NCBI RefSeq assembly: GCF_900343155.1
Contig: NZ_OUNG01000006.1
Span: 1-64,000, forward strand
Direction of reading: 5' to 3'
Origin: Lactimicrobium massiliense
GTDB taxonomy: Bacteria; Bacillota_I; Bacilli_A; Erysipelotrichales; Erysipelotrichaceae
DNA length: 64,000 bases
Part shown: in pieces, positions 43,912-63,688 of the stretch
Position numbering within the stretch: the first letter of the stretch is position 1
Layout of the letters: every line of letters starts with the position of its first letter
The notes under the pieces: model-generated
Seen by the model: the letters and a program-made list of their open reading frames with translations, nothing else
Databases searched by the model: none
What the model was told of the DNA's origin: nothing
Program-made: the position numbers and the translations under genes

Positions 43912-43924
43912 GAAGGAGGAAAAA

Positions 43925-44179
43925 ATGAGCAGAAAATTAGACAAGATCGGTGAGGATCTGGAGAAGACCAGAGCTCGCTATGAAGAATACGGCAGAAGAA
44001 TTCAGGAACTGGAAGCACAGTATGCGGAACAGGAGAAATCCGAGATCAGCGATATCGTCCATGCGGCGAATCTGACACCGGACCAGCTGCAGAAATTGCT
44101 GGCAAAGATGGCGGTGGATCCGATCCCGCAGGGTGCAATTCCGGAAGATGTCATGGAGGATAAGCAGAATGAAGATTAA
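43925..44179 (+). CDS. DUF4315-family protein
   Basis: An 84-residue protein with a coiled-coil N-terminus ([20 protein letters not shown]) and the conserved [17 protein letters not shown]. It is constant beside P60 and DUF4366 genes in Tn1549-like elements; role unknown. AAGGAGG precedes the ATG. Its end overlaps the next start by 11 nt. Confidence 0.82.
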
Positions 44180-44882
44180 ACGAATGCTGAGTACCTTATT
44201 GTGCTGCAGTGCATTGATGATGAGCTGCACATCGATTCCGGCCTATGCGCAGACCAATGAATCTACTGATCCCGGCACTACCGAAGAAACAGTGCAGGAA
44301 GAGACGCAGCCGGAGGAAGACGAAGACCTGCCTCCTCTGACACCGGAAGGGAATATGACGCTGGTGGACGACATTACTTCCGAGAAAACAGGGAAGCAGT
44401 TCATCACAGTTGTCAGCAAGAATGGCAACTACTTCTATATCATCATTGATCGCGACGATCAGGGTGAGAACACCGTTCACTTCCTGAATACCGTCGATGA
44501 ATCCGATCTTCTGGCACTGATGGATGAAAAAGATGCCCAGGCAATCCTCGATGCGGAAGCCCAGGAGGAAGCTGAGAAGACAGCGGCAGAACAGGCGGCA
44601 AAGGAAAAGGCAGAGAAGGAGGCTGCTGAAGCGGCGAGTCAATCGGAAATTACACCGGCAGTAAAGGAAACGAAACCGATCAACTGGATCCCGGCAGCTG
44701 TCTGCGTCATGCTGGCAGGCATTGGTGTTGTCGGATTCTTTGCCATCCGGATGAAGAAGAAAACACAGAAGACAGAACAGCAGCCGGATCCAGATGCGGA
44801 CTATCACGAAGACGATGATGGCTATGATCTTCCGGAGGACACGGATGATGAAACAGAGGAAGAGTCCAAAGATGACGAATAA
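44169..44882 (+). CDS. DUF4366-family surface protein
   Basis: About 237 residues. A signal peptide ([19 protein letters not shown], ending AYA) is followed by an acidic Thr/Glu linker. A small conserved domain spans about residues 55-125 ([20 protein letters not shown]), then an Ala/Glu coiled coil, and near the C-terminus one membrane segment ([20 protein letters not shown]) with an acidic tail. Predicted exposed on the outer face of the membrane, perhaps stabilising mating contact (inference). Confidence 0.82.
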
Positions 44883-44943
44883 GGATATGCGGGCGGTTTC
44901 GGAACTGCCCGCTGTCTTTCCTTCTAAGCAGAAAGGAGTTCCT

Positions 44944-45069
44944 ATGAATGATGAAGAAGAACTGATCGAATTTTCGACAACCGGAACCATCCGCGATGAT
45001 CTTCCCATGACTGATGAGCCTGTGATCCTCGTGATCCCGATCGGAGGTGATGCCGATGCGTTCAGCTAA
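44944..45069 (+). CDS. Very short element protein (41 residues)
   Basis: ATG 44944 follows AAAGGAG. The product MNDEEELIEFSTTGTIRDDL continues DEPVILVIPIGGDADAFS. Its last codons contain the ribosome site of the RadC-ArdC gene, whose start lies 14 nt inside this gene, so it may serve translational coupling. No family recognised. Confidence 0.5.
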   Translation: MNDEEELIEFSTTGTIRDDLPMTDEPVILVIPIGGDADAFS

Positions 45070-46795
45070 GGAATACAAACTGGAACAGGTCGGGATCCGG
45101 ATGGTGCAGGAACCGCCGCTGTATTCTACAGAACCGATCACCAGCCCGCAGGATGCAGTCCGGATCATCGCCGAGACGTTGAAAAAGTATGATCGGGAAG
45201 TTTTCTGCGTGGTCAATCTGCGCAATGACATGAAGCCGATCAATGTGAATGTGGTATCAGTTGGTACGCTGACTGCTTCCCTGGTTCATCCTAGGGAGAT
45301 CCTGAAGAGTACGATTTTGTCCAATGCGGCGTCGGTCATGCTTTTTCATAACCATCCAAGTGGTAATCTGATGCCATCCCAGGATGATATCGATGTGACG
45401 GCCAGGCTGCAGAAGATCTGTGATCTGCTGGGGACACCGGTGCAGGATCACATCATCATCGGCAATGATGACCGGTATTTCTCCTTTATGGAACATGACA
45501 TTCTGAAGATCCCGCCTGCACCGGAGAGGGTTTCTCTGGATGATATCGATCTGAAGGGAGTAGCCGAACCGCCGGCAGGCTTCACAGCTTTGAAACAGGA
45601 GTCCGCACCGGCAAAGAAAAAGCCGATCGAGGAGATTACGGATCAGCTGGAAAAGGGTGTGCAGGAGATCTTTGAGAGCGACAAGTACAAAGAGTGGCTC
45701 TCCACAATGTCCAAGTTTCATCATTATTCGCTGAACAATACGATCCTGATCGCCATGCAGAGACCGGATGCGACTTCCGTAGCCGGGTATCAGGCATGGA
45801 AGCGGAACTTCGGACGGCAGGTCCGCAAGGGAGAAAAGGGCATCAAGATCATTGCTCCGTCTCCGTACAAGATAAAGGCAGAACAGGAGAAGAAGGATCC
45901 GGCAACCGGGAAACCGATCCTCGATGCCAACGGGCAGCCGGTCAAGGAGACGGTGGAGATCGAACGTCCGGCATTCCGTGTGGCAACGGTCTTTGATGTC
46001 AGTCAGACGGATGGCAAAGAACTGCCGACACTTGGCGTAGATGAGCTTTCCGGTCAGGTGAAAGACTTTGACCTGTTCTTTGAAGCACTGAAGCGGACTT
46101 CTCCAGTTTCGATTACCTTTGAAGAAATCACCGGTGGGGCAAAGGGATATTACCAGGTCGTGGATCAGCGGATTGCGATTCAGGAAGGGATGAGTCAGAC
46201 ACAGACTGTAAAGACAGCGATCCATGAGATGACGCACGCTACATTGCATTCCCTGGAAAAGATGAAGGCAGACGGGAAGGAAAAGAGCAGCCAGACCAAA
46301 GAGGTTGAAGCCGAAAGTGTTGCCTATACGATCTGCCAGCACTATGGCATAGATACTTCCGATTATTCCTTTGCCTATATCGCCGGCTGGTCTTCGGGAA
46401 AGGAAACAGCAGAGCTGAAAGCGTCCTTGGAAACAATCCGCAGTACCGCCAGTGATCTGATCACAAGAATTGATGAGCAGCTGGAAACGCTGATGAAAGA
46501 GCGTGAAGCAGAGATCCAGCAAGCAGCCGAGCAGCCGTCTGTCCTAAGTGCTCTGCAGCAGTTATCTGTTGCCGAAAATACGGATAAGCCAAAAGAGTAC
46601 CGCTATCAATGCAATCATCGTCCGCCGGGACCCGGTGCCGTACCTAAAGAAGGACTGGAGTACTGCGACGATGAAGGATCCGGAAGATACGGTGATGTCG
46701 TTTACAACCGTCCGCTGACAGAGAAGGAACTAAAGAGTTTTGAGCTGGATCCGGTAAAAAGCATGAAGCGGGAAGCCAGAGATCCGGAGCGCTAG
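45056..46795 (+). CDS. RadC (JAMM) / ArdC-like / zincin fusion protein
   Basis: A 579-residue fusion. The N-terminal RadC/MPN domain carries the JAMM signature HNHPSGNLMPSQDD (about residues 98-111). The middle has the ArdC-type ssDNA-binding pattern (FHHYSLNNTILIAMQRPDAT; VAGYQAWKRNFGRQVRKGEK). The zinc peptidase site HEMTHA is at about 389-394, followed by KEVEAESVAY. ArdC proteins protect incoming DNA from restriction; RadC is linked to DNA repair in mobile elements. Start ATG 45056 follows GGAGGTGA. A shorter C-terminal tail (RYGDVVYNRPLTEKELKSFE) is unassigned. Confidence 0.85.
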   Translation: MRSAKEYKLEQVGIRMVQEPPLYSTEPITSPQDAVRIIAETLKKYDREVFCVVNLRNDMKPINVNVVSVGTLTASLVHPREILKSTILSNAASVMLFHNHPSGNLMPSQDDIDVTARLQKICDLLGTPVQDHIIIGNDDRYFSFMEHDILKIPPAPERVSLDDIDLKGVAEPPAGFTALKQESAPAKKKPIEEITDQLEKGVQEIFESDKYKEWLSTMSKFHHYSLNNTILIAMQRPDATSVAGYQAWKRNFGRQVRKGEKGIKIIAPSPYKIKAEQEKKDPATGKPILDANGQPVKETVEIERPAFRVATVFDVSQTDGKELPTLGVDELSGQVKDFDLFFEALKRTSPVSITFEEITGGAKGYYQVVDQRIAIQEGMSQTQTVKTAIHEMTHATLHSLEKMKADGKEKSSQTKEVEAESVAYTICQHYGIDTSDYSFAYIAGWSSGKETAELKASLETIRSTASDLITRIDEQLETLMKEREAEIQQAAEQPSVLSALQQLSVAENTDKPKEYRYQCNHRPPGPGAVPKEGLEYCDDEGSGRYGDVVYNRPLTEKELKSFELDPVKSMKREARDPER

Positions 46796-48797: not shown

Positions 48798-50186
48798 ATG
48801 GCAGCGACCAAATTGATTTCCATGCACCAGACAAAAGGGAAGACAGCTGTGCAAAGTCTGAAAGGCCGGCTCGATTATTCCGAGAATCCGGATAAAACAG
48901 AAGACGGTAAATATATTTCTTCCTATGCCTGCAGCCCGGAGACAGCAGCGGAAGAATTCGCACTTTCCAAGGAAGAATATCTGCGGATCACCGGCAGAGT
49001 CTATAAGGGAGATATCCTGGCTTACCAGATCCGACAGTCATTCAAGCCTGGTGAGATCACACCGGAAGAAGCAAACAAGATCGGTTATGAAACTGCGATG
49101 CGTTTCACCAAGGGCGAGCATGCCTTTGTTGTATCAACACATACAGACCGTGCCCATATACACAATCACATCATCTTTAACTCTGTTGCACTGGACTGTA
49201 CGCGGAAGTTCAAGAATTTTTTCTTCTGTGGTCTGGCGTTGCAGACGCTGAGCGATATCATCTGCCTGGAACACGGAAAATCTATCATTCAGAAATTGCC
49301 GCCATCTCAGCGAAAGAAGCGGGAGACATATCCCAAGCGTCATGCATTCCGGGATGAACTTCGAGGACAGATCAGCAGTGAGCTGCAGAAGAAACCAAAA
49401 TCCATGGATGCATTTGTCTCTTCCTTGGAGAAATCCGGGTATGAGATCAAGCGGGGAAAGCACATTTCGGTTAAGGGGCATGGACAGAAACGATTCATCC
49501 GTCTGGATTCTCTCGGTGAAGGATTCGCTCAGCAGGACATCGAACAATTCATCCAAGGCAATACAAAGAAACGACCGGCCCGGAAAAGAGATGAACAGAT
49601 GGATCTGCTCATCAACCTGCAGGATAAGGTCCTGTCGGGTAAAGGCAGCGGCTATCAGCGCTGGGCAGAGAAGTTCAATGTCAAACAGATGGCGAAGGTC
49701 TTGCTCTTTCTGCAGCAAAACAATATCCATGATATGAAGCAACTGCGCAGGCTTGCTTCGGAAGCATCCAGAGGTGCAGACAATCTGCATGAAACGATCC
49801 GTTCCATGGATGATCGTCTGGAAGAGATCCGCCAGCTGAAGAACCACATCTTCAATTACTCCCGGACAAAGAATATATATGAGGAATACAGGAAATCCGG
49901 ATATGATCCTGCCTTTCTTACAGAGCATGAAGAAGACATCCGCAAGCATGAAGCCGCTAAGGATGCCTTCGATCAGTTGCCGGACAAGAAGATCCCGAAG
50001 GTAAAAGAACTTAATGAAGAATACAGCCGCATCGTAGAAGAGAAGAAAAAGGCTTATGCGGAATACCGCACAGCCAGGAACAAAGCCAAGGAACTTCAGA
50101 TTGCATTGAAGAATGCGGAGATCATCCTGGAGAACGAGCAAGAACGAAAACGCGAAAGAAAATTTGGTAAAAGCCAAGCTCGTTGA
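48798..50186 (+). CDS. MOBP-type relaxase
   Basis: A 462-residue mobilization nuclease. The HUH-type metal site is HTDRAHIHNHIIFN (H115, H120, H122, H124). The N-terminal ISMHQTKGKTAVQSLKGRLD with nearby Tyr residues contains the candidate nicking tyrosine. The C-terminal half is a long coiled coil ending ERKRERKFGKSQAR. It nicks oriT and pilots the strand. It is the last backbone gene in the window and ends 13 nt from the convergent HEPN gene. Confidence 0.88.
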   Translation: MAATKLISMHQTKGKTAVQSLKGRLDYSENPDKTEDGKYISSYACSPETAAEEFALSKEEYLRITGRVYKGDILAYQIRQSFKPGEITPEEANKIGYETAMRFTKGEHAFVVSTHTDRAHIHNHIIFNSVALDCTRKFKNFFFCGLALQTLSDIICLEHGKSIIQKLPPSQRKKRETYPKRHAFRDELRGQISSELQKKPKSMDAFVSSLEKSGYEIKRGKHISVKGHGQKRFIRLDSLGEGFAQQDIEQFIQGNTKKRPARKRDEQMDLLINLQDKVLSGKGSGYQRWAEKFNVKQMAKVLLFLQQNNIHDMKQLRRLASEASRGADNLHETIRSMDDRLEEIRQLKNHIFNYSRTKNIYEEYRKSGYDPAFLTEHEEDIRKHEAAKDAFDQLPDKKIPKVKELNEEYSRIVEEKKKAYAEYRTARNKAKELQIALKNAEIILENEQERKRERKFGKSQAR

Positions 50187-50199
50187 AATACAGGGAGAC

Positions 50200-51393
50200 T
50201 TAAATGGCGTTCATCTTTATCAGAAAATCTGTGAAAAGAATCGCATTCAAAGCTGTCTTCTTGCTTGGATATTGGCTAAACCAACTATGCGCCATCTGGT
50301 GTCTTCCTGGCAGATCCTGTTTAATTTCTTCTACGGAGTTACAGTCGTAGAAAATACAACTTGTGCTGAACTCAGCATATATTTGGGGATAATCATTATT
50401 AAGGATCAATTCTTCTGATTCAGTTCTTATTGCTTTTATACTTTGTCGTTCATTGCCATGACCAGTCTTGTCTTTTATGATACCTTCCCAGAAAGATACT
50501 AACACAATTGCAGTAATGGCATATTCTCCTCTGTGGTACGCATAGACAGCTTGGTTTAATATACGTATTTGAAAGCTTGCGAGATCACAATATCTCCATG
50601 ATTTTCGAATACTCTCAATTCTGCTTTTCGTATACTGATCATAAATCAACCGGTTAATTCTCTTCTCACGGCTTTTGGACCCGGCATTTGTATGAATAAG
50701 AGTATTCATTAAGCTTTTGTGAAATTCTCTATCTTCCAGACTGATGATATAAGGAAACCAGTTCTCACTTAATAAAACCTGATTCAGCCCGTTTAAATAT
50801 GATGATAAGATTGATTTCCCAATCTCGCTCAGGTGAGTATAAAATGGCTGATAAATTTCTGTTATCTTAGCGATGGATGATAATAGAGCTTGGTTTTGTG
50901 CAGCAATCGTCTGTGCTAATGATTCTTGTTCCAATTTCCACGCGGATGTGTCAATTAGTGATCCAATATTAAGTTTGAATGATTGCAGTGCAGCATCAGT
51001 TACTAAGCTTGTATTCAGATTTGATAACGGTTGAAAAGACCGGAGAATAGAAGCCATAGAATCCATATATGCTGTCTGTAATGGTTTCGTAGATTCAACG
51101 ACAGATTGAAGGGCAGACGATATCCCTTCCATTGAAACTGTAGCTGCTGTAATAGATAGCCGATCCATTACAGGTGTCAATATTTCTGAAAAGCGCAGAT
51201 TTTGCCTCTGAATTGAGTTGAGCGTTTCCTGTAATGCCGGAGAAATAATCGATGCCTGGATTGAATTTGATAAGTTCGTAATATTAGCAATGGACGCAGC
51301 TAAAGAATCATAAGCCGCTGTTCTGGTTCTGGAATCTAAATCGTTTTTTGATGATTCATTCGGGATTTCTGTATCTTTTTCGTCTTTATCCAT
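50200..51393 (-). CDS. HEPN-domain protein, putative RNase effector
   Basis: A 397-residue soluble protein starting MDKDEKDTEIPNESS (ATG at 51393, AAGGA just upstream). The N-terminal two thirds are helical and Ser/Thr/Asn-rich. The C-terminal part (about 280-397) has the HEPN pattern: ILNQAVYAYHRGEYAITAIV, then LPGRHQMAHSWF, giving the Rx4H RNase motif at R364 and H369, then TALNAILFTDFL. HEPN proteins of abortive-infection and toxin systems cleave RNA. It lies between the relaxase and the BREX locus on the opposite strand, 18 nt downstream of a structured RNA-like element. RNase activity and control by that element are inferences. Confidence 0.7.
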   Translation of the reverse strand: MDKDEKDTEIPNESSKNDLDSRTRTAAYDSLAASIANITNLSNSIQASIISPALQETLNSIQRQNLRFSEILTPVMDRLSITAATVSMEGISSALQSVVESTKPLQTAYMDSMASILRSFQPLSNLNTSLVTDAALQSFKLNIGSLIDTSAWKLEQESLAQTIAAQNQALLSSIAKITEIYQPFYTHLSEIGKSILSSYLNGLNQVLLSENWFPYIISLEDREFHKSLMNTLIHTNAGSKSREKRINRLIYDQYTKSRIESIRKSWRYCDLASFQIRILNQAVYAYHRGEYAITAIVLVSFWEGIIKDKTGHGNERQSIKAIRTESEELILNNDYPQIYAEFSTSCIFYDCNSVEEIKQDLPGRHQMAHSWFSQYPSKKTALNAILFTDFLIKMNAI

Positions 51394-51411
51394 TCGATTT
51401 TCCTTATTGGT

Positions 51412-51515
51412 AAAAATAGATCTTTGCCGCAGGCAAAGTTCAAGGGGATTGGGGTGCTTCCCCAACAAGCATCTGGTCTTCGTGACACGAAGACACTGCT
51501 TGCCCATCTATTTTT
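51412..51515 (-). ncRNA. Structured element, copy 2 (RNA-like, leader of the HEPN gene)
   Basis: Core at 51422-51502 on the plus strand: hairpin CTTTGCC/GGCAAAG with GCA loop (51422-51438), invariant TTCAAGGGGA link, hairpin TTGGGG/CCCCAA (51449-51465), outer stem CAAGCA/TGCTTG (51466-51471 with 51497-51502) enclosing TCTTCGT/ACGAAGA (51477-51493). The whole is closed by a 10-bp inverted repeat, AAAAATAGAT at 51412-51421 and ATCTATTTTT at 51506-51515, so read on the minus strand it ends in a stem plus U-run right before the HEPN ribosome site. Every stem is kept in copy 1 at 6.24 kb with compensatory changes. Confidence 0.65.
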
Positions 51516-51966: not shown

Positions 51967-52383
51967 GTGGGCGTAATAACTCGTATTGATAAACTTGCTG
52001 ATGACAAGTATATGAAGCCGGTAATATATACTGCTCGTAATTATGCTTCAGGCATAGAACAGATTTCTATGAACCGTCCTCTTGCCGAGAGGTTAATAAA
52101 GCTCACTACACCTAGGCAGCGTGGAATGCGGATGGGAAAAGTGTTGTTGGATTGTCTAAAGGATCAGCCGGATGATGTTGTGATAACAGATATCGATGTA
52201 ATGTTTAACCCGGATTATCCGATCGATGTTCTGCAGGTTTTAATCGATACCTGTAGAGTGAAAGCTTTCCAGGTCCTATGGCCCGGAAGCTATGAGTCTG
52301 GAGCGCTTATATATTCTGTTCCGGATAGACCAGATTATAAGAAGTATTTGATTGAAAACTATGATGTAACAGTCATCATTTAA
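51967..52383 (+). CDS. brxF: BrxF-like BREX type 3 protein
   Basis: A 138-residue protein placed first in a type 3 BREX operon, where brxF belongs. The core matches: LAERLIKLTTPRQRGMRMGK, then DDVVITDIDVMFNPDYPIDV and QVLWPGSYESGALIYSVPDR. In typical BrxF an N-terminal P-loop precedes this core; here the corresponding segment KPVIYTARNYASGIEQI has no GxGK(T/S). It starts at GTG 51967 after GAGGGGGCGAG. Nucleotide binding is doubtful. The assignment relies on order plus core pattern. Confidence 0.72.
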   Translation: MGVITRIDKLADDKYMKPVIYTARNYASGIEQISMNRPLAERLIKLTTPRQRGMRMGKVLLDCLKDQPDDVVITDIDVMFNPDYPIDVLQVLIDTCRVKAFQVLWPGSYESGALIYSVPDRPDYKKYLIENYDVTVII

Positions 52384-52398: not shown

Positions 52399-55300
52399 AT
52401 GAAGTATTCAGAATTGATCAGCTTTCATCCTATAGAAGATATTATTCAGCTGACTACTGCAAACGATGATAACAGAGCCAAAGAATATGTAAAAAGCTAT
52501 GTGATGAGTGATCAGATGGCGGAGAATCTGAAGGCACCGGTTATCGACCAACTTCAGATGGACGAAGTAGTAGACAATCACGGTGTATTGATCGTTGGTA
52601 ATTATGGTACAGGTAAATCTCACTTGATGAGTGTTATTTCGGCAATCGCATCGAACGCAGATGATCTGCAGTATCTGCAGAATAAGAAATTTGCAAATGA
52701 GATGCAGTGTGTTGCGGGTAAGTTTGAAATACTTCGCATGGAAATTGGCGGGGTTACGATGAGCTTACGCGATATTATCTTCGGTTACATCGAAGATGAT
52801 TTTGCAGATAGGGGAATTGATTTCACAGTTCCGGATTTGGATAAGGTTCGTGATAACAAAAAGCTTATTACGGATATGATGCTTGCCTTCAACGAGAAAT
52901 ATCCTGGCAAAGGGTATTTAATTGTGGTTGATGAGCTTCTTGGCTACCTCTCTTCAAGAAATGAAAAGCAGATTGTGCTGGATCTGGAATTCCTTCGTGC
53001 ACTTGGTGAGATGTGCAGTAAGAGCAGACTGCGTATTATTTGCGGCCTTCAGGAGAAAATCTTTGATAATCCTCGCTTCAGTTTCGTATCGGATACACTG
53101 AAGCATGTCAGTGACCGGTTTACGCAGCTTTTGATCACAAAAGAAGATACAGCGTATGTTGTATCTGAGAGAATTCTGAAGAAAACACCGGAGCAGAAGG
53201 CATGGATCCGTCAGCATCTTGAGAAATTCTCAAATCTGTATGGTGGAATGTCATCTAAGATGGATCAGTTTGTCGATCTCTTCCCAATCCATCCAGCCTA
53301 TATTGACGTTTTCAATCAGGTTTATCTCGTTGAAAACCGGCAGATTTTGAAGAATATTTCTATAACAATCCGAGATATTTTCGATGAGCAGGTTCCGGAA
53401 GATAGACCTGGAATTTATTCCTTTGACACATATTGGCCGGCAATTAAATCAAATGGACTGCTGAAGAGTGATGTGACAATCCGCAGAGTCGTTGATGCAA
53501 GCTCGCAGCTTGAAGATATCATTGACAGAGCTTTCCCGAAACCGTTTTATAAACCGCTGGCAATACAGATCATTTATGCTCTTAGTGTGCACAGATTGAC
53601 GACGAACGGACTTGATGTTCAGTTCGGATTGTCTGCTGAAACACTGAAGGATGATCTGTGCTTATTCCTGCCAATGCCAGAACAAGATCCAGAATTCCTC
53701 TTGGGCATTATCCGCACCACGCTCAAGGATATCATGATGACTGTATCTGGCCAGTTTATCGTTTACAACGACAGCAATGGTCAGTATTACATCGATGTAA
53801 ATAAAGTTGTTGACTATGATGAGAAGATCAAGCAGAAAGCATCCATCATGGCTCCAAGTGAATGGAACCGCTACTTTTATGAAGTGGTTTATGGATGCAT
53901 GGAGTGGTCAGAGAAGCAGTATGTTCCAGGCTTTGAGATTTATCAGTATGACCTGAACTGGGAAAGCCATAACATTTTCCGTGAAGGTTATCTCTTTATG
54001 GGAATTCCGGAAGAGCGCAGTACTGCTCAGCCGGAGCGTGATTTCTATATTCATTTCATGCCTCCGTATGATGCGAAGGAAGATCATGTTCGGAATTTAG
54101 ATGACGAAGTGTATTTCTACTTCAAACCATCGGCAGAGTTTAATGACAACATGCAGCTATATGCTGCTGCCAGCGCCATGGCAAATGAGAGTGAGGGCAA
54201 GGATAAGGATGCTTATCTGACAAAGAAGTCCACTCTTAAGAAGAAGCTGATCCGTTATCTCAGTGAGAACAGGAATACCTGCTTCGATGTAAGCTACCAT
54301 CAGCATCGGAGACAGCTGATTGAGATCCTGCGCGGAAAACATATTGTTGACAGCACATTTAAGGGGTCAATCGATCTTGCAGCGTCTTTGTGCTTTGACG
54401 AGTATTTTGATAATAAATATCCTGAGTTCCCGGTGTTCAGAACCAAAATCACCAGAAAGAACATGGCGGAGAATGTCCGAGCAGCGTTTGACTATTTTGC
54501 CGGTCGTAAGAATAGCCAGGTTGCGGTAGCATTGCTCAAAACCTTTGGCGTGCTTGATGACCATGATCGCATCAAACCGGAAGGATCTAAGTATGCCGGC
54601 TATTATATCGATCTGCTGAAGAAGCTTCCTCAGCAAGGGGTTCTGAATTACAGCGATCTATTTGAATATCAGTACGGATGGCAGGATTCCGTCGAGTTTG
54701 TTGATAAACACTTTAAGATCAGCATGCTCTTCACACCGATTATCTTCCTCTCGATGGTATATGGCGGATATGCAGTTATCACACTGAGAGATGGAAAGAC
54801 GCAGGTGACAGCATCTTCACTGGACCAGATTCCTAAGACAGGTGCACTGGATTTATATGAATTCAAATATCTGTCAAAACCTGCAGAAGTGTCTCTTGCT
54901 GAATTGAAGAAGTTATTCGAGATACTGGACATCAACCCGGTTTATCTGGATAACCCAAATGATCGAGAGAAAGGCATCAGCCTGTTGCTGAAGAAGGCAC
55001 AGGATCTTAGCAATACAGCAGTATTGAGCAGCTCGAAAATTGAGAACAGCTTTGATCTGTGGGGCGAGCCGATGGCAAGTACGCTCTTGATTGCGCAGAT
55101 GCGGAATGCCTGCAAGGTCATTAGAGACGAGTTTGCGAACTACGGTGCAAAGTATAATACGCCGGCAAAGCTCAACAACTTCTCACATACGATGGAAGAA
55201 GTGGAAGAGTTAGAAAAACAGATCAAGATCCTGATGGCTGTTCCGGAATATCTGACATTTAAAAATGAATGCTCCGACATTATCAACTACATGTCAAAGA

Positions 55301-56124
55301 TTGAATACTTTGATCTGGGAGATGATCTCAAGAAGCAAATTTCAGATGGCAAAGAGCAGTTCCGCCAGATTCGTGACAGTATTGCGGACGGAACAAAAGG
55401 CGATGCTGCAGCACATCAGGTAGAGGCTGCTCTTGATAAGGTTAAGGATGCGTATATCAACCTGTATTTTGAGGAACATAAGAGAAAGCGTCTGGATATA
55501 AATGAAGCGAAGAAACGCGGCAAACTACAGGAAAGCCAGGCTCTTGCTAACCTGAAGAAGCTTCGTAATGCAGATGAAAATAAGAACGTTCTTTCACTTG
55601 CAAAATTGCAGGCTATTGAACAGGATCTGGCAGAGCTTGTTACATGTTATGAACTGACACCGGAAGAACTGAAGCATGATCCTGTTTGTCCTCATTGCCA
55701 TTACCAGATTGGCAGCAAGGCCAAGAATGTGTATGGACAGCTCGATAATCTGGAGCAGAGAATTGATGATCTTGTGACTGAATGGACCGGAATGCTACTG
55801 AATACAATTACTGATCCTATCGTTCTTAGTCAGAAGAAATATCTTAAGAAAAAACAGGCAGATGTAATTGATGAATTTGTGGCAACAAAGACTCTTCCGC
55901 GGAAGGTAGATGACTTCTTTGTGCAGAGCATTAAAGATCTGCTGAAGGGTTTTGATCCGGTTGTGATTGATACAGATGAGTTGGTTTCCAAGCTGGACGA
56001 AATTGGACCATGCGATGTCACAACATTTGAGGCAAAAATCAAGTCACTCATTGACGGATATATTAAAGACAAAGATCCGAGCAAGCTGCGCATTGTAGTG
56101 AAACGGAAAGACAGTGAGGCATGA
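52399..56124 (+). CDS. brxC: BrxC/PglY-type BREX-3 ATPase
   Basis: A 1241-residue P-loop protein (DUF6079-like). Walker A GNYGTGKSHLMS lies at about residues 68-79 and Walker B GYLIVVDELLGYLSS at about 173-187. A long coiled-coil region follows around 930-1090, with a CPHCHYQIG zinc-like knuckle near residue 1097. BrxC is the large ATPase of BREX complexes needed for methylation and phage defence. It overlaps pglX by 4 nt. Confidence 0.87.
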   Translation: MKYSELISFHPIEDIIQLTTANDDNRAKEYVKSYVMSDQMAENLKAPVIDQLQMDEVVDNHGVLIVGNYGTGKSHLMSVISAIASNADDLQYLQNKKFANEMQCVAGKFEILRMEIGGVTMSLRDIIFGYIEDDFADRGIDFTVPDLDKVRDNKKLITDMMLAFNEKYPGKGYLIVVDELLGYLSSRNEKQIVLDLEFLRALGEMCSKSRLRIICGLQEKIFDNPRFSFVSDTLKHVSDRFTQLLITKEDTAYVVSERILKKTPEQKAWIRQHLEKFSNLYGGMSSKMDQFVDLFPIHPAYIDVFNQVYLVENRQILKNISITIRDIFDEQVPEDRPGIYSFDTYWPAIKSNGLLKSDVTIRRVVDASSQLEDIIDRAFPKPFYKPLAIQIIYALSVHRLTTNGLDVQFGLSAETLKDDLCLFLPMPEQDPEFLLGIIRTTLKDIMMTVSGQFIVYNDSNGQYYIDVNKVVDYDEKIKQKASIMAPSEWNRYFYEVVYGCMEWSEKQYVPGFEIYQYDLNWESHNIFREGYLFMGIPEERSTAQPERDFYIHFMPPYDAKEDHVRNLDDEVYFYFKPSAEFNDNMQLYAAASAMANESEGKDKDAYLTKKSTLKKKLIRYLSENRNTCFDVSYHQHRRQLIEILRGKHIVDSTFKGSIDLAASLCFDEYFDNKYPEFPVFRTKITRKNMAENVRAAFDYFAGRKNSQVAVALLKTFGVLDDHDRIKPEGSKYAGYYIDLLKKLPQQGVLNYSDLFEYQYGWQDSVEFVDKHFKISMLFTPIIFLSMVYGGYAVITLRDGKTQVTASSLDQIPKTGALDLYEFKYLSKPAEVSLAELKKLFEILDINPVYLDNPNDREKGISLLLKKAQDLSNTAVLSSSKIENSFDLWGEPMASTLLIAQMRNACKVIRDEFANYGAKYNTPAKLNNFSHTMEEVEELEKQIKILMAVPEYLTFKNECSDIINYMSKIEYFDLGDDLKKQISDGKEQFRQIRDSIADGTKGDAAAHQVEAALDKVKDAYINLYFEEHKRKRLDINEAKKRGKLQESQALANLKKLRNADENKNVLSLAKLQAIEQDLAELVTCYELTPEELKHDPVCPHCHYQIGSKAKNVYGQLDNLEQRIDDLVTEWTGMLLNTITDPIVLSQKKYLKKKQADVIDEFVATKTLPRKVDDFFVQSIKDLLKGFDPVVIDTDELVSKLDEIGPCDVTTFEAKIKSLIDGYIKDKDPSKLRIVVKRKDSEA

Positions 56125-58649
56125 TTATGGAAAAGAGGAAATTAACAAAAGAGGACATCGATAAAGTCAGAGATATTGATGGTTTCCCGATCGGAACGGA
56201 TGAAGATATTATTGCTCTCTCAGATGCACCATACTATACTGCATGCCCAAATCCATTCATTGGAGAGTTTATCGAAGAAAATGGACACCCTTACGATGAA
56301 AAAACAGATGACTATCATAGAGAACCATTCGCAAGTGATGTAAGTGAAGGAAAGAGTGATGCAATTTATACCGCTCATTCTTATCATACTAAAGTGCCTT
56401 ATAAAGCTATTATGCGGTATATCCTTCATTATACTGAGCCAGGGGATATTGTTTTCGATGGATTCGCGGGAAGTGGTATGACTGGGATTGCTGCACAGAT
56501 GTGCGGTCAAGAAAGTGCCGTAAAGCAGCTAATGCCTAAAGCCAAGGTTGGAGAACGACTTTCAATTCTTTCAGATCTTTCTCCTGCGGCACAATATATA
56601 ACATATAGCTATAATACGAAAATCAATCCATATGAATTCCATAAGGAAGCATCTGAAATTATAGCGTCATGTGAAAAGGAATGTGGGTGGGTATATAAAA
56701 CTAGACATCCAATTGAGAACAATTCATTTTTTAAAGGTGACTTATATGGTGAAATAAATTATGTAGTCTGGTCTGATGTTTTCATTTGCCCACATTGCGG
56801 AAAAGAAATAGTTTTTTATAAGGCTGCATACGATCCTGTTCAATCTAAGGTCCTTGATAAATTCAAATGTGACAATTGCGGAGCTGTTTTAGAAAAAAAA
56901 GAATGTGAGCATGCTAAAGAGTATATACAATCGTCAATAAGTTCGGATATAAAATGGATTGGTAAGCAGGTTCCGGTTCTTATCAATTATACTTATGGTG
57001 GAAAAAAATATACAAAAATACCCGATGCTGAGGACCTGGAGAATATAGAAAAAATAAACTCGATGGCAATCCCTTATTGGTATCCAAAAAACAAAATGCC
57101 TAATGGGGATAATACGCAACAACCGTTGATGTCACATAATTTGCAATATGTAGAAGAGTTTTATACAAAAAGGAACCTTTATGTACTTTCATATTTGAAT
57201 AAAGCTATTGGTTCATCAAGGGTTCGAATAGCATTTCAGGCAATGAACCCCACGCTGAGCTCAAAATTAGTGCGGTACAACATGGGAAACAGAGGCAATG
57301 GGCCACTAAATGGAACGTTATATGTGGCCTCTCTTGTTGCAGAATCAAATGTAATACGTGCATTCAAGGGGAAAGTAGAAGATTTCACAAAAGTTTATGC
57401 TTCTACGTCAAGTTTTAATGGAGCTATGTGCAATACAGCATCATCAACTTCGCTGAAAAATATTCCCAATAATAGCATTGATTACATTTTTACTGATCCA
57501 CCATTCGGAGCGAACATCAATTATTCTGAGTTGAGCTATATTTGGGAAGCATGGTTAAAGGTTACAACTAATAATAGTGATGAGGCAATAATCAATAAAA
57601 CCCAGCAGAAGGAATTGAGTGATTATCAAGAATTGATGACCGATTGCTTCGTGGAATTTCAAAGAATTTTAAAACCTGGCCGATGGATGACAGTTGAATT
57701 TCATAATTCAAAAAATGCTGTTTGGAACAGTATCCAAGAGGGATTGCAAAGAGCTGGTTTTATTATTGCAGATGTAAGGACACTTGATAAGAAGCAAGGA
57801 AGTTTCAAACAAGTGACAACTACTACTGCAGTCAAGCAGGACTTGATTATTTCAGCATATAAACCTGTAGAAACTTTTACTGAAGAGTTTAAGTTAAAAG
57901 CCGGTAGTGATGAAGCAGTATGGGCGTTTGTGACCCAACACTTGCGTAATTTACCAGTAGCTCCGGATGGAGACCATGATGGCAAAATAGATATAGTGCC
58001 AGAACGACAAGGATATTTGTTATATGATCGAATGGTTGCATGGCATGTCATGAATGGGGTTGCGGTACCGATGGATGCAAATGCCTTCTATTTAGGATTA
58101 AATGATCATTATTTAATGCGAGATGGAATGTACTTTTTGCCAGATCAAGTAAATGAGTATGATCAAAAAAGATCATTTATGGAACTCGAAAATGTTCAAG
58201 AGGCGTTTGCAATCCAAGATGAAAGAGGAGCTATTCAGTGGCTTAATTATGAATTGAACGATCCAAAAACATATGCAGAACTTCAACCTAAGTATCTACA
58301 AGAGCTTCATCAGCTCCGCACTGAGAAAATGCCGGAACTAATTGATTTGTTAAATGAAAACTTTCTTCAGGACGAGGAAGGTAAGTGGTATATTCCGGAT
58401 ATTCGTAAAGCTGGTGATGTTGAGAAGCTCCGTCAGAAGAGCTTGCTGAAGGAATTTGAATCTTATTTGGGAGGTAAAGGTAAGCTGAAAGTATTCCGTT
58501 CCGAGGCGATAAGAGCAGGTTTCTCAAAGCTTTGGAAGGAAAAGGATTATAAGAACATCGTTGCAATAGCGGAGCGGCTTCCGGAGGCAACGATTCAGGA
58601 AGACCCAAATCTCTTGATGTACTATGACATCAGTTTAAGTAGGGTATAA
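56121..58649 (+). CDS. pglX: BREX-3 DNA adenine methyltransferase PglX (PglXI)
   Basis: An 842-residue methyltransferase. YYTACPNPFIGEFIEENG opens the N-terminal part. Motif I DGFAGSGMTG is at about residues 113-122, and the catalytic motif IV TDPPFG at about 458-463, followed by NYSELSYIWEAW. A zinc ribbon (CPHC, CDNC) sits between them at about 223-254. It methylates host DNA at the BREX site for self-recognition. ATG 56121 overlaps brxC; ATG 56127 is also possible. The stretch is more AT-rich than brxC. Confidence 0.87.
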   Translation: MIMEKRKLTKEDIDKVRDIDGFPIGTDEDIIALSDAPYYTACPNPFIGEFIEENGHPYDEKTDDYHREPFASDVSEGKSDAIYTAHSYHTKVPYKAIMRYILHYTEPGDIVFDGFAGSGMTGIAAQMCGQESAVKQLMPKAKVGERLSILSDLSPAAQYITYSYNTKINPYEFHKEASEIIASCEKECGWVYKTRHPIENNSFFKGDLYGEINYVVWSDVFICPHCGKEIVFYKAAYDPVQSKVLDKFKCDNCGAVLEKKECEHAKEYIQSSISSDIKWIGKQVPVLINYTYGGKKYTKIPDAEDLENIEKINSMAIPYWYPKNKMPNGDNTQQPLMSHNLQYVEEFYTKRNLYVLSYLNKAIGSSRVRIAFQAMNPTLSSKLVRYNMGNRGNGPLNGTLYVASLVAESNVIRAFKGKVEDFTKVYASTSSFNGAMCNTASSTSLKNIPNNSIDYIFTDPPFGANINYSELSYIWEAWLKVTTNNSDEAIINKTQQKELSDYQELMTDCFVEFQRILKPGRWMTVEFHNSKNAVWNSIQEGLQRAGFIIADVRTLDKKQGSFKQVTTTTAVKQDLIISAYKPVETFTEEFKLKAGSDEAVWAFVTQHLRNLPVAPDGDHDGKIDIVPERQGYLLYDRMVAWHVMNGVAVPMDANAFYLGLNDHYLMRDGMYFLPDQVNEYDQKRSFMELENVQEAFAIQDERGAIQWLNYELNDPKTYAELQPKYLQELHQLRTEKMPELIDLLNENFLQDEEGKWYIPDIRKAGDVEKLRQKSLLKEFESYLGGKGKLKVFRSEAIRAGFSKLWKEKDYKNIVAIAERLPEATIQEDPNLLMYYDISLSRV

Positions 58650-58653: not shown

Positions 58654-59241
58654 TTGAGCGATAGTGTTAAAGAGACAAGTGATTTATCCGATGCTGAGGC
58701 GGAGAATGTTCGGCTGGCTGAGCAAGAAAAGCAAGCTGTGTCGTTGTACAAACATGTAAAAGAGTTAGCTCAGTTGAAATATGATGGAGAGTTGAGAAGA
58801 GAAGATTCTCTCATTCAGCAGTCCAGTCATATGCAGACTGCATTCTCTTTCATGACGGCTGCCGTTTTCATGGCGCTTCCAATTGTAATTGAACACAGAG
58901 GTGTGTTGACCATGAATTTTCTCTTCATCTCTGTGTCAATTATGGTGGGTTTGCTTCTGGTAAGCTTGGTGATGGCTTCAATCGCTCAACGCAGGATAAA
59001 GAAGAAGGCTCCTCAAAATGTTTCGGATCTAGAAAAGTTCGTATCGGATAATTGGCAAGATACACTTAAAGAATCGCAGCAGCTGAAACAATGGGTAGAT
59101 GTGGTTGGCGAAATACAGGAAAGTACTGCAAAAGCCAACGATGAAAGAGTAATTTTTATCCGCTTATCAATGGGATTTTTCCTAGCCTCTGTAGCGGCAA
59201 TCGTAATTTGTTACATTGTGGCACTCTGTAAAATATTATGA
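58654..59241 (+). CDS. Three-TM membrane protein inside the BREX operon (SLATT-like)
   Basis: A 195-residue protein. The N-terminal 50 residues are charged and helical (EAENVRLAEQEKQAVSLYKH). Membrane segments are at about 51-71 (AFSFMTAAVFMALPIVIE), 77-100 (FLFISVSIMVGLLLVSLVMA) and 167-193 (SMGFFLASVAAIVICYIVAL), separated by a long helical loop. The layout resembles SLATT and Pycsar-type membrane effectors, but no domain was confirmed. It lies between pglX (stop 5 nt upstream) and two microprotein genes, so it is part of the operon yet outside the canonical BREX-3 set. Start TTG 58654. Confidence 0.7.
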   Translation: MSDSVKETSDLSDAEAENVRLAEQEKQAVSLYKHVKELAQLKYDGELRREDSLIQQSSHMQTAFSFMTAAVFMALPIVIEHRGVLTMNFLFISVSIMVGLLLVSLVMASIAQRRIKKKAPQNVSDLEKFVSDNWQDTLKESQQLKQWVDVVGEIQESTAKANDERVIFIRLSMGFFLASVAAIVICYIVALCKIL

Positions 59242-59250: not shown

Positions 59251-59412
59251 ATGTCAGAAAACCAAACGACAAATGCTGGCAATTCGGAGCCACATTCTCA
59301 GAATCCAATGAGTTCCGTTCATACTCCACCGGTTCCTACAACAGAGCAGCGATCCGGAGATAACAGTGAAAATATATCGAGAGGTATAACAGATGTCAGA
59401 AGAAAAAAATAA
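59251..59412 (+). CDS. Microprotein A (53 residues) with NPMxSVHTPxVPT motif
   Basis: ATG 59251 follows GAGGA. The product has a polar, disordered N-terminus (MSENQTTNAGNSEPHSQ), then NPMSSVHTPPVPTTEQ, and a basic end. No family recognised. The same motif occurs in the next ORF, and the two overlap by 20 nt in different frames. Two tandem ORFs sharing 10 of 13 motif residues are strong evidence for real, translated genes. Confidence 0.6.
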   Translation: MSENQTTNAGNSEPHSQNPMSSVHTPPVPTTEQRSGDNSENISRGITDVRRKK

Positions 59413-59518
59413 GAATGGAGAATCTCAAGGAGCAGATAATAATCCGATGAAATCTGTTCATACTCCTTCGGTGCCTACAAAAGCGGAAAATGAAATAAAT
59501 AAGAAGCCGAAGAACTAA
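59393..59518 (+). CDS. Microprotein B (41 residues) with NPMxSVHTPxVPT motif
   Basis: ATG 59393 follows GAGAGG, inside the end of microprotein A. The product MSEEKNKNGESQGADN is followed by NPMKSVHTPSVPTKAE and a lysine-rich tail. It is a paralogue of microprotein A. It ends 27 nt before brxHII, whose ribosome site is distinct. Confidence 0.6.
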   Translation: MSEEKNKNGESQGADNNPMKSVHTPSVPTKAENEINKKPKN

Positions 59519-59545: not shown

Positions 59546-62221
59546 ATGTTCGATATAGGAGATGTGGTTTATGACCGAACCGCCGCAGCTAATGTGCGGA
59601 TACTCGAAAAAAATGAAATCTGGGGCTATGTCTCCTATAAAGTATTCAATTCATCAACCGGCAAGGTGTATCGGGCATCAGAGGATCAGTTATCGAAAAC
59701 TGGAGATTCAGTGCGTTATGACGAAAACTATCTCCGGTATGTAACATTATTGTCGAAAATAAAGAATGAAACCGCCGGGGGAATTCTTTCATCTCTTTCT
59801 AGCGGAATCATTCCCTTGCCTCATCAGCTTCATGTATTAAACCGTGCCATGTCAACTAACAACGTTCGCTATATTCTTGCAGACGAAGTTGGTCTTGGAA
59901 AGACGATTGAAGCCGGCATGGTTATTAAGGAAATGAAGACGAGAGGGCTGATCAACCGGATTTTAGTTGTCTGCCCGACCGGCTTGGTTACACAATGGTC
60001 GACCGAGATGCAGGAGAAGTTTCATGAGAAGTTCAATGTGATACTTCCCTCGGACTATGACACAATTCGCAGACTCACAGATAACGATGACGTATATGGT
60101 CAGTTTGATCAGGTGATATCTCCTATGGATTCCATCAAGCCAATTGAAAAGAGAGCTGGATGGACGGATGAACGTGTTGAGAAGTATAACGAGGAACGCA
60201 TTTACTCGATCATTAACAGTGGCTGGGATCTGATTATCATTGATGAGGCTCATAGAGTTGCTGGATCCAGCGGTGAAGTCGCCAGGTATAAACTTGGGTA
60301 TTTGCTATCCCAGGCAAGCCCGTATTTGCTTTTGTTGACGGCCACGCCGCATAATGGCAAAACTGAACCGTTTCTGCGGTTGGTCCGTTTGCTGGATGAA
60401 GATGCCTTCCCGAATGCGAAATCTGTTGTAAAAGAACAGGTTGCACCGTTCTTAATTCGCACCGAGAAGCGTGAAGCTATCGATAACAACGGAAATCGCC
60501 TCTTTAAGAACCGTGAGACGCATCTGGTCGTCCTGAATTGGGATGAAAGGCATACTTGTCAGAGAGAATTATATGAACGTGTAACGGCATATGTCCGTCA
60601 GACATATAATAAAGCGCTCCGCAACAGAAAGAAGAACATGACACTCATCTTCCTGCTGATTATTATGCAGAGGATGGTGACAAGCTCAACGACTGCGGTG
60701 AAAAAGAGCCTGATGCGCCGGCTGCAGGTCTTGCTGAACCAGGAAACGAAACTCAGCAATATGACCGAGGAAGATTTTGCAGAACTTGATATAGAAGATG
60801 GATCTGAAGATGCTCTTCAGGCTGTTTCACTGGACGTGAAAGAAGAGATCAGCGAGCTTGAAGAGATAATTGAAATTGCAAAGCAGGCGGAATATCAGTA
60901 TCCAGATGTAAAAATTGAAGAACTGACGGAATTGATTGATAAACTTTTAACGCAAGATGCAAACCAGAAGATCATCATTTTTACAGAATTTGTTGCGACG
61001 CAGGAGTATCTGAAAGGTATCCTGGAAAAGCGTGGGTATACAGTATCGATCTTGAATGGTCAGATGAGCATAGAAGACCGGAATCTGGCTCTGCAGGAGT
61101 TCCGTGAGAAAACAAATATTTTCATTTCAACCGATGCGGGCGGTGAAGGCCTTAACCTGCAGTTTTCGAATATTGTCATCAACTATGATCTCCCATGGAA
61201 TCCGATGAAGATTGAGCAGAGATGCGGTCGTGTAGATCGTATCGGACAGAAACGAGATGTTGAAATTTATAACTTCATTATTGAGGATACAGTGGAGAAT
61301 CGTGTCCGCCAGGTACTTGAAGAAAAGCTCTCAGTTATCCTGGAAGAGATGGGTGTCAATAAATACTCAGATGTTCTTGACAGCGAAGTGGCTGAAGTAG
61401 ACTACACCGATGTATACATGCACTCGATTGCAAAACCGTACAACATCGATAAGAATCTGTATCCGGTTGAGCATGAGGTAAAAGAGCAGGTTGCCAATGC
61501 ACAGAAATATAAGGACATCATAAAAGAAGATAAGGATCTGTCGCAGCTTGTCGGCAAAGAGTCCAACTTCGATGTGGAAGCAGCACTCCGGATGACGATT
61601 ACATACTATGATGCATGGCGCGGCGAAGATCCTAAACTGATCTTGGATCGTCTTTCAATCAATGATGATGTTTTCACAGAGCATATCCGAAAGAATATCC
61701 GACAGAATCACTTCTCGGAGCTGATGTCAGTGTCGATCAAGGATTTTCCGAATGAGGAAGGTTATTTCATGCTTTGGGAGTTATCTGTCACCGATGCTGA
61801 AGATGCGCAGAGGATCCTGCCGATATTTGTGAATGATGATTTTGTGCTGCGGCCGATGGCTGGCCAGCGAATCATGGATGTTTTCCTGAACCCAAGCTCC
61901 AGGCTGACGGTCAAACAAGTGCCTAATGTATCTGAAGAAGTATATGGGCAGCTGCAGAAATTGAGCATGAATTTTGCTTATGAAAGCTTCTTGGCATTGA
62001 AGGATAAGCAGATTAAGCGGGAGGAAGAGAATTACAGAAAATATAAATATGCTCTGTCACTTCGCACAGAAGCAGCGCAGCATATCGGGATCGATAATAT
62101 TCGCATTGCTCGTCTGAAAAAACTGCACGAAGAAGGGCAGGATATTGAACGTAAGCATCAAGAAGGACAGCGATTATATCCGGAGTTCAACCTGATGCTG
62201 CTTGTTAGATTGGAGGCGTAA
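59546..62221 (+). CDS. brxHII: BREX-3 helicase BrxHII (SNF2-like)
   Basis: An 891-residue superfamily 2 helicase. Motif I ADEVGLGKTIEAG is at about residues 112-124, motif II IIDEAHRV at about 231-238, motif III LLTATPHNG, and motif VI QRCGRVDRIGQKRDVEIYNF in the C-terminal lobe near 558. This SNF2/RapA-like type is the BREX type 3 helicase. ATG 59546 follows GAGAGGTGAC. pglZ starts 3 nt after its stop. Confidence 0.87.
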   Translation: MFDIGDVVYDRTAAANVRILEKNEIWGYVSYKVFNSSTGKVYRASEDQLSKTGDSVRYDENYLRYVTLLSKIKNETAGGILSSLSSGIIPLPHQLHVLNRAMSTNNVRYILADEVGLGKTIEAGMVIKEMKTRGLINRILVVCPTGLVTQWSTEMQEKFHEKFNVILPSDYDTIRRLTDNDDVYGQFDQVISPMDSIKPIEKRAGWTDERVEKYNEERIYSIINSGWDLIIIDEAHRVAGSSGEVARYKLGYLLSQASPYLLLLTATPHNGKTEPFLRLVRLLDEDAFPNAKSVVKEQVAPFLIRTEKREAIDNNGNRLFKNRETHLVVLNWDERHTCQRELYERVTAYVRQTYNKALRNRKKNMTLIFLLIIMQRMVTSSTTAVKKSLMRRLQVLLNQETKLSNMTEEDFAELDIEDGSEDALQAVSLDVKEEISELEEIIEIAKQAEYQYPDVKIEELTELIDKLLTQDANQKIIIFTEFVATQEYLKGILEKRGYTVSILNGQMSIEDRNLALQEFREKTNIFISTDAGGEGLNLQFSNIVINYDLPWNPMKIEQRCGRVDRIGQKRDVEIYNFIIEDTVENRVRQVLEEKLSVILEEMGVNKYSDVLDSEVAEVDYTDVYMHSIAKPYNIDKNLYPVEHEVKEQVANAQKYKDIIKEDKDLSQLVGKESNFDVEAALRMTITYYDAWRGEDPKLILDRLSINDDVFTEHIRKNIRQNHFSELMSVSIKDFPNEEGYFMLWELSVTDAEDAQRILPIFVNDDFVLRPMAGQRIMDVFLNPSSRLTVKQVPNVSEEVYGQLQKLSMNFAYESFLALKDKQIKREEENYRKYKYALSLRTEAAQHIGIDNIRIARLKKLHEEGQDIERKHQEGQRLYPEFNLMLLVRLEA

Positions 62222-62224: not shown

Positions 62225-63688
62225 GTGTTTGGAGACTATGTGTATGAGCAGTCGGCGGCAAACTGGGATCATAAATTGTTAATAGAAGATTATTCCGGCA
62301 TCGGCTTTGCTGCTTCATGCACGGATGTCTTTCTGAGAAATGGGTTCCATATTATTCCTTATTTGGATGATCTATCTTTCCGACTGAATTCATATGATGA
62401 GCTGTTAGATCAGGATAAGAAGATTGTAGTTCTATTGGAAGAACGAAAATACGTGCCATATGACGTAAGCAGACGCCTACACTGCTATCAGCTGTCCTTT
62501 GAAAAACTGTTTCCGAAGCTTAACAGCGATGCATTGCGCGATCAGAAATCATTGGATCTGAATTTGCTTTCAGAAGCTTATGTGAAAAATTATGAGGACC
62601 AGCGCAGCAAGAGCAGAACCGAGGATTTTTTGAGTAAGAAAGTATATGTAGCGGATAATGCCATAAATGTAGTCCGTGAGTCCTATGCGCAGCTTCTCTC
62701 ATTAGCCAAACGTGGCTGCAACTATAAAGACTGGATGAAGATAGCGGAAGGCAAAGCAAGGATTGACATACTTTCCTGCCAATATCAGCTGGATTTTGAT
62801 TCGTCGGAACTGAACCGGATTTTTGAGACATTTGTTATTCAGAATTTTGGAAAGCTGTCCGGCGAAATTGACTGGCATACACCAGTCCTTGTCAGCAAGG
62901 CCATGGATTACATGAGCGCGAAAAGTAAGAAGTTCGCACTGGTGGTAATGGACGGAATGAGTGAGTTTGACTGGGATGTGCTGTCAGAATCTTTTGAAGG
63001 TATTCATTACTCAAGATCCGCAGCAATGGCTATGGTGCCGACAATTACTTCTGTTTCCAGACAATGCTTGGTTGCCGGAAAGTATCCGCGTGAACTTATC
63101 AATCCATGGAAACAGGAGAAGGAGAAGCAGGAATTCACACAATGTGTGAAGAATTTGGGGTATAAAGACCAGCAGATTCAGTATGGCAGAGGTTATGACT
63201 TTGAACCGGAAACATTCTCAAAGTGCTGTTGCGTAATCATAAATGACTGTGATGATATGGTGCATGGTCAGAAACAAGGAATGCCCGGCATGTATCAGGA
63301 TATGAAGCTTTTAGCCGGACAAGGAAAACTTGCGGAATTGACGAGAAGACTGATTCGCAAAGGATTTGATGTATATATTTCGGCAGATCATGGAAACACG
63401 GAATGCATTGGCGCAGGGCTTTTGAAAGGCACAGGTGTTGAAACTGAGACAAAAAGTCATCGCATGATTGTCTTGAAGGATTATGCAAACCAGGATCAGT
63501 TAAAAGAGAAATATTCTCTAATCGAATTTCCCAAATATTATCTGAACAAAGAGCTGAATTATCTGATCTGTGAATGTGGAGAATCCCTAGATGCGAAGGG
63601 CATGCGTGTCATGAGTCACGGGGGAATTACGCTAGACGAAGTAGTTGTCCCTTTTATCGAGATCAAGGCAGGTGAAAACAATGGCTAA
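62225..63688 (+). CDS. pglZ: BREX alkaline-phosphatase-superfamily protein PglZ
   Basis: A 487-residue PglZ protein. The metal-binding segments VVMDGMSEFDWDVL (about residues 240-253), VPTITSVSR (with the Thr at the nucleophile position) and ISADHGNTE (about 388-396) are those of the alkaline-phosphatase superfamily domain. PglZ is present in nearly all BREX types. Starts at GTG 62225. It overlaps brxA by 8 nt. Confidence 0.87.
   Translation: MFGDYVYEQSAANWDHKLLIEDYSGIGFAASCTDVFLRNGFHIIPYLDDLSFRLNSYDELLDQDKKIVVLLEERKYVPYDVSRRLHCYQLSFEKLFPKLNSDALRDQKSLDLNLLSEAYVKNYEDQRSKSRTEDFLSKKVYVADNAINVVRESYAQLLSLAKRGCNYKDWMKIAEGKARIDILSCQYQLDFDSSELNRIFETFVIQNFGKLSGEIDWHTPVLVSKAMDYMSAKSKKFALVVMDGMSEFDWDVLSESFEGIHYSRSAAMAMVPTITSVSRQCLVAGKYPRELINPWKQEKEKQEFTQCVKNLGYKDQQIQYGRGYDFEPETFSKCCCVIINDCDDMVHGQKQGMPGMYQDMKLLAGQGKLAELTRRLIRKGFDVYISADHGNTECIGAGLLKGTGVETETKSHRMIVLKDYANQDQLKEKYSLIEFPKYYLNKELNYLICECGESLDAKGMRVMSHGGITLDEVVVPFIEIKAGENNG

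What the first reader, a model, noticed from the sequence alone, without database searches (positions are those of the whole stretch)
59251..59518. Two overlapping microprotein ORFs sharing an NPMxSVHTPxVPT motif
Seen: 53- and 41-residue ORFs in different frames, each with its own ribosome site, both containing the same 13-residue proline-rich motif in a disordered context. Paralogy at this length in two frames is unlikely by chance. A short linear motif suggests docking to a shared partner such as the adjacent TM protein, PglZ or the helicase.
Basis: seen in the sequence. Interest (0 to 1): 0.74.

Follow-up and report, generated by a model that had tools for sequence, protein, structure and literature searches.

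The report
Membrane protein plus two microproteins in BREX
Two tiny paired genes next to a membrane-protein gene form a conserved, swappable three-gene unit inside a bacterial anti-phage (BREX) operon, most likely an extra defence module whose parts dock through a shared short motif.

Summary
Two ORFs (53 aa, 59251-59412; 41 aa, 59393-59518) each have a Shine-Dalgarno-like site and share the motif NPM[SK]SVHTP[PS]VPT. They overlap by 20 nt, but the motifs lie outside the overlap: they are tandem paralogues.

The unit is larger than reported: the upstream 195-aa, three-TM protein (58654-59241) plus both microproteins. Three other BREX-3 loci carry the same trio in the same PglX-BrxH slot, with the same order and frame step. 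Motifs there are diverged and under purifying selection (pS 0.68, pN 0.30). Profiles trained without a locus rank its pair ahead of all other untrained frames among 20,417, though L027's second copy is weak (E 0.33).

Two closely related BREX loci differ by exactly these genes. The slot holds cargo in 26 of 70 spanning loci, often known defence modules (CBASS, OLD-TOPRIM, SIR2-HerA, Kiwa). The motif is most alike within a locus; the tails are slot-specific.

Best reading: a portable accessory anti-phage module, a membrane effector with two disordered adaptors docking on one shared partner, probably the membrane protein. Conservation and modularity are shown; docking and function are inferred, without experimental or structural support.

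The parts
58654..59241 (+). 195-aa membrane protein (TTG start), three TM segments, first gene of the cassette
   Evidence: hydropathy and charge; homologues 52-59% identical in L022, L027, L041; no Pfam family over its cut-off
59251..59412 (+). microprotein s1, 53 aa
   Evidence: orthologues L022:4673-4825, L027:3378-3524, L041:4596-4805
59302..59340 (+). motif copy 1, NPMSSVHTPPVPT
59393..59518 (+). microprotein s2, 41 aa
   Evidence: orthologues L022:4815-4988, L027:3511-3696 (or TTG 3490), L041:4786-4962
59441..59479 (+). motif copy 2, NPMKSVHTPSVPT
59393..59412 (+). 20-nt overlap of s1 end and s2 start; the overlap is 20, 11, 14 and 20 nt in the four loci, always a +1 frame step
51967..52383 (+). 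BrxF (host operon)
   Evidence: PADLOC BrxF 3.4e-18
52399..56124 (+). BrxC / DUF6079 (host operon)
   Evidence: PADLOC BrxC and Pfam DUF6079, E 0
56121..58649 (+). PglXI methyltransferase, upstream border of the slot
   Evidence: PADLOC PglXI E 0
59546..62221 (+). BrxH helicase, downstream border of the slot
   Evidence: PADLOC BrxHI|BrxHII 6.7e-299
62225..63688 (+). PglZ (host operon)
   Evidence: PADLOC PglZ 3.5e-67

Best explanation
The two ORFs are the second and third genes of a portable three-gene cassette (three-TM membrane protein, s1, s2) sitting in the PglX-BrxH cargo slot of a Type 3 BREX operon. Shown: the trio is conserved, always found together, under purifying selection in the motif, and exchanged as a unit. 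Inferred: it is an accessory anti-phage module. The TM protein would be its membrane effector. s1 and s2 would be intrinsically disordered regulators that bind one common partner, most likely the cytosolic parts of the TM protein, through the shared motif. Their different tails would give the two separate roles, for example holding the effector off versus coupling it to a sensor or to BREX failure. My rough confidence: functional conserved unit 0.95; accessory defence module 0.6; motif partner is the TM protein 0.5; all steps together 0.4.
For: Conserved trio in 3 other loci, in the same slot and order, s2 always in the +1 frame. Leave-one-locus-out profiles: in each of 4 runs the two left-out ORFs were the best-ranked frames not trained on, among 20,417, with E 9.8e-9/4.5e-6, 1.5e-10/1.1e-4, 1.4e-3/0.33, 1.4e-8/5.3e-6. 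Selection: pS 0.68 versus pN 0.30 over the 13 motif codons in 12 same-slot pairs. TM and microproteins occur only together among the loci then held. Carriers' BrxH do not form a clade; 4 state changes on the tree. L022 and L039 (BrxH 99% identical) differ in a segment that starts 3 nt after the L022 PglX stop and ends within the first codons of BrxH. Slot contents: 26 of 70 spanning loci filled; 16 of the 23 filled loci without the cassette hold a protein matching a defence-related family. Motif: own-locus pairing of s1 with s2 is the best of 24 pairings; tails: the observed slot labels are the best of 8. A TM homologue outside BREX (L104, 32% identical) is also followed at once by a small ORF.
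Against: Only four trio loci are known, so the permutation tests are coarse (1 of 24, 1 of 8). The motif itself has been seen only inside BREX; the L104 small ORF lacks it. L027 s2 is weak (E 0.33 when left out) and its motif ends in PL, not PT. Gene conversion could also make the motif alike within a locus. No structural evidence of docking, no meaningful fold match, no experiment. Seven of the 23 other filled slots hold nothing that I recognised as defence.
Confidence: 0.4

Rival explanations
1. BREX cofactor: s1 and s2 dock through the motif on a BREX core protein (BrxH, PglZ or PglX) and with the TM protein they anchor or tune the BREX complex at the membrane.
For: All four motif-bearing loci are BREX-3; the TM homologue outside BREX has a following small ORF without the motif.
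Against: 67 of the 70 spanning loci lack it; a BrxH 99% identical to a carrier's sits beside other cargo; other cargo in the slot is often self-contained defence.
Confidence: 0.25
2. Toxin-antitoxin-like trio: the TM protein is a membrane-damaging toxin and the microproteins are its paired inhibitors, kept for stability of the mobile element more than for defence.
For: Very small genes beside a membrane protein, on a stretch with conjugation-type genes; s1 and s2 share a locus-specific motif, as expected for binding one co-evolving partner.
Against: Position in a defence cargo slot; two paralogous inhibitors downstream of one toxin would be unusual (recalled); toxicity is untested.
Confidence: 0.2
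3. Chance or relic: the ORFs are not translated genes, and the motif is a recent DNA duplication.
For: Very short, disordered, no library match.
Against: Conservation in three diverged loci with near-saturated synonymous change; ribosome sites and overlaps kept.
Confidence: 0.02

Closest known systems
BREX Type 3 (BrxF, BrxC, BrxXI/PglXI, BrxHII, PglZ, BrxA) with embedded auxiliary effectors, PMC12839542
   Same: The cassette sits within such an operon; that paper describes nuclease effectors embedded within BREX core loci as backups (part 1 of sections 25 and 35 read).
   Different: The paper's text has no occurrence of transmembrane, SLATT, CBASS, Kiwa or SIR2; it describes nucleases, not a membrane protein with microproteins.
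CBASS with Cap15 or SLATT (2TM) effectors
   Same: Small membrane effector, found in the very same slot in other loci (L010, L017, L051, L076).
   Different: No cyclase in the cassette; no Cap15 or SLATT match for the TM protein.
Kiwa (KwaA membrane protein plus KwaB)
   Same: Membrane protein paired with a partner, found in the same slot (L070).
   Different: No sequence relation of the TM protein to that KwaA; the partners are microproteins, not KwaB.
Toxin-antitoxin modules with membrane toxins (recalled, not from a call)
   Same: Tight operon of a membrane protein and very small partners.
   Different: Two paralogous partners with a shared motif, downstream; no known family matched.

Membership tests
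BREX Type 3 (host operon) | BrxF, BrxC, PglXI, BrxH helicase and PglZ in one operon | tested here: met
   a related plasmid locus is annotated 'BREX-3 system phosphatase PglZ'. PADLOC's best helicase profile is labelled BrxHI, though the paper assigns BrxHII to Type 3.
BREX Type 3 (host operon) | BrxA present | not tested
   The window ends 312 nt after PglZ; I did not look for BrxA.
SLATT / CBASS 2TM effectors | Sequence match of the TM protein to a SLATT profile | tested here: not met
   No SLATT family at E up to 10 for any of 4 members; hhalign with the L076 SLATT_4 protein gives probability 0.2% (a profile of only 4 sequences).
CBASS | CD-NTase gene in the unit | tested here: not met
   The slot holds only the TM gene, s1 and s2 in the window, L022 and L041.
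Kiwa | KwaA-like membrane protein plus KwaB | tested here: not met
   No PADLOC KwaA match for the window or L022 TM proteins; no other large ORF in the window's slot.
8xMP (PF24838) | Score over the curated cut-off | tested here: not met
   Best 18.3 bits against 30; the profile also matches in 10 of 14 control genomes, over its cut-off in 1.
NINJ1-like or other solved folds | Clear structural match | tested here: inconclusive
   Foldseek none at E 0.001 or less; NINJ1 Z 11.5, rmsd 3.2, 108 aligned, within the helical-bundle noise that the tool states.
Toxin-antitoxin | Toxicity of one gene neutralised by the neighbour | not testable with these tools
   needs expression

The most novel reading that the evidence does not exclude
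A new kind of anti-phage module: a three-TM membrane effector governed by two paralogous disordered microproteins that compete for, or jointly occupy, one docking site through a shared 13-residue motif, with distinct tails for off and on signals, riding as cargo inside BREX so that it can act when BREX is inhibited.
Probability: 0.3. Interest if true: 0.75.

Novelty: new variant of a known kind. Interest (0 to 1): 0.58.

Why it matters
If right, BREX operons carry an interchangeable cargo slot, and one of its cargoes is a membrane module run by two microproteins that ordinary annotation would easily miss. It gives a three-gene, testable system and a motif with which to look for others. It would also warn that defence operons may hide essential components of 40-70 residues.

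Tried and rejected
Exact motif as a degenerate DNA pattern in viral contigs: no match. The looser motif search in all loci then held gave only the window's own copies plus chance hits; the diverged motifs were found only by reading the ORFs beside TM homologues. TM protein in plasmids and phages: none with L022's or L104's protein. TM profile in viral contigs: none. Helicase profile in viral contigs: four loci, none with the cassette.

Whole-genome searches for the TM protein: order 294 genomes, phylum 392 (24), relatives of the three carriers 149, 149 and 148 (35-37), classes 26 and 391 (78, 79), relatives of G1349 198 (88); some genomes are counted more than once. Outside the known carriers only G1349 (L104) and a broken copy in G1335 (L105) scored clearly; weak hits in G244, G702, G873, G937 and G953 (E 9e-4 to 0.008; G873's carries 3 stops inside, the other four 1 each) I dropped as not convincing.

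8xMP lead: dropped, it matches in 10 of 14 control genomes. PDB sequence search with the TM profile and NCBIfam scan: nothing meaningful. NINJ1, Orai, BAR and other fold matches: at helical noise level. Kinase acting on the motif: only L027 has one and its motifs lack most of the threonines, so I did not pursue it. AlphaFold of TM plus s1: s1 unresolved. The selection counts use pairs that share ancestry, so they are not independent. My tree left out one filled locus (L065) because its best single BrxH piece was too short for the script's filter. Two filled slots (L047, L058) were not scanned against families, as they look like L044.

Full report
What is there. The window holds a Type 3 BREX operon: BrxF, BrxC/DUF6079, PglXI, then a 195-aa membrane protein, the two reported ORFs, the BrxH helicase and PglZ. 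s1 (59251-59412) and s2 (59393-59518) both carry the motif; their best 13-residue match is 11 of 13, against a maximum of 9 in 3,000 shuffles. The ORFs overlap by 20 nt, outside the motifs, so they are tandem paralogues with a frame offset. In the window's own genome the s2 protein matches only these two places.

Relatives. The helicase brought 78 loci from genome contigs (470 relatives found, the best 80 kept) and PglX brought two from viral contigs. Three of these 80 loci (L022 Tepidanaerobacter MAG, L027 Ruminococcaceae MAG, L041 Firmicutes MAG) have a homologue of the membrane protein (52-59% identical) between PglX and BrxH, each followed by two small overlapping ORFs with a diverged motif: NPMKQVQTTQIPT and NPMKLVQTTSIPT; NPMKQPAPPPMPT and NPMSAVSVPIMPL; SPMKQVVTPQIPT and SPMKDVKTTSIPT. 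Order, the +1 frame step and overlaps of 11 to 20 nt are kept. A profile of the membrane protein and one of the microproteins hit the same four loci and no other of those then held. Because that microprotein profile was trained on its own hits, I repeated it leaving out one locus at a time: the left-out pair always came next after the training rows, ahead of all other of 20,417 frames, with E-values from 1.5e-10 to 1.4e-3 for the better ORF of each pair and 4.5e-6 to 0.33 for the other. The 0.33 (L027 s2) is not significant alone; that assignment rests on its position as well.

Selection. Over the 13 motif codons in 12 same-slot pairs between loci, pS is 0.68 and pN 0.30; over 21 codons 0.74 and 0.38. 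Between the window's own two copies pS is 0.40 and pN 0.10, and the contrast is reversed in the other two frames. Synonymous sites are near saturation between loci while the motif holds.

Two layers of signal. Within the motif, s1 and s2 of one locus resemble each other more (mean 9.25 of 13) than same-slot copies of different loci do (7.25); own-locus pairing is the best of 24. In the next eight residues it is the reverse: within-locus mean 0.5 of 8, same slot across loci 2.08, and the slot labels as found are the best of 8. I read this as one partner per locus bound by both motifs, and a separate job for each tail. Gene conversion of the motif would look similar, and four loci cannot exclude it.

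A cargo slot. Of 80 loci, 70 span the PglX-BrxH junction: 44 empty (gap under 150 nt), 26 filled; 10 do not span. Of the 26, three hold this cassette. Of the other 23, 16 hold a protein matching a defence-related family: SIR2 with HerA (L006), Cap15 CBASS (L010, L017, L051), Schlafen AlbA_2 (L016, L050), AAA_13 proteins, of which L019 matches PADLOC PDC-S06 and PrrC (L019, L020, L059), OLD-TOPRIM (L025, L030, L043, L065; L043 also SMODS), Kiwa (L070), SMODS with SLATT_4 (L076) and PDC-M36A, a PADLOC candidate family (L077). The other seven (L039, L044, L047, L052, L057, L058, L074) gave no such match or were not scanned (L047, L058). L027 holds a PD-T4-6-like kinase besides the cassette. On a BrxH tree of 70 rows the four carriers do not group: 4 changes, one-clade test p 1.9e-112. 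BrxH of L022 and L039 are 99% identical, yet their slots differ; DNA similarity stops 3 nt after the L022 PglX stop and resumes within the first codons of BrxH. PglX and BrxC also diverge in parts between these two loci. At this junction, then, the differing segment is exactly the trio.

The membrane protein. Hydropathy gives three TM segments, with about 40-60 residues before the first and a charged loop of about 60-67 residues between the second and third. By the positive-inside rule the N-terminus and that loop would face the cytosol (inference). No Pfam family passes its cut-off; AlphaFold gives long helices at mean pLDDT 73; fold matches are at noise level. So the family reaches beyond BREX, and a small downstream ORF may go with it, on one example.

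Mechanism. Best supported: an accessory anti-phage module with a membrane effector and two disordered adaptors sharing one docking partner, probably the membrane protein. Rivals are a BREX cofactor and a toxin-antitoxin-like trio. None is experimentally tested.

Literature. I read the abstract, the outline and part 1 of sections 25 and 35 of PMC12839542, and searched its text; it treats nuclease effectors embedded in BREX loci and has no occurrence of transmembrane, SLATT, CBASS, Kiwa or SIR2. The paper searches showed, in their listings alone, nothing on this trio; I opened no other paper. So I found no description in print within that open-access library and those searches.

Noticed in passing
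window 34888-46795 and 48798-50186: Conjugation-type genes (T4SS coupling protein, TraG-like P-loop, NlpC/P60, RadC/ArdC/DarA-like protein, MobA/VirD2 relaxase): the BREX operon appears to ride on an integrative or conjugative element.
   Followed up: partly
window 17331-20417: A GmrSD-type restriction protein with a DUF4268 domain, directly after a ResIII helicase protein (13893-17306): a second defence-like cluster on the same stretch.
   Followed up: no
PglX-BrxH junction of BREX-3 loci: The junction looks like a general cargo slot for complete defence modules, 26 of 70 spanning loci filled.
   Followed up: partly
L044:4223-4983 (also L047, L058): An 88-aa zinc-ribbon-like protein plus a 161-aa membrane-like protein without a family match in the same slot: another candidate cargo.
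   Followed up: no
L039:4414-4974: A 186-aa protein with an N-terminal hydrophobic segment and no family match is the cargo of a locus whose BrxH is 99% identical to that of L022.
   Followed up: no
L027:3727-4986: PD-T4-6-like Ser/Thr kinase lies between s2 and BrxH.
   Followed up: partly
window 50200-51507, - strand: 435-aa protein between the relaxase and BREX with no Pfam or PADLOC match.
   Followed up: no
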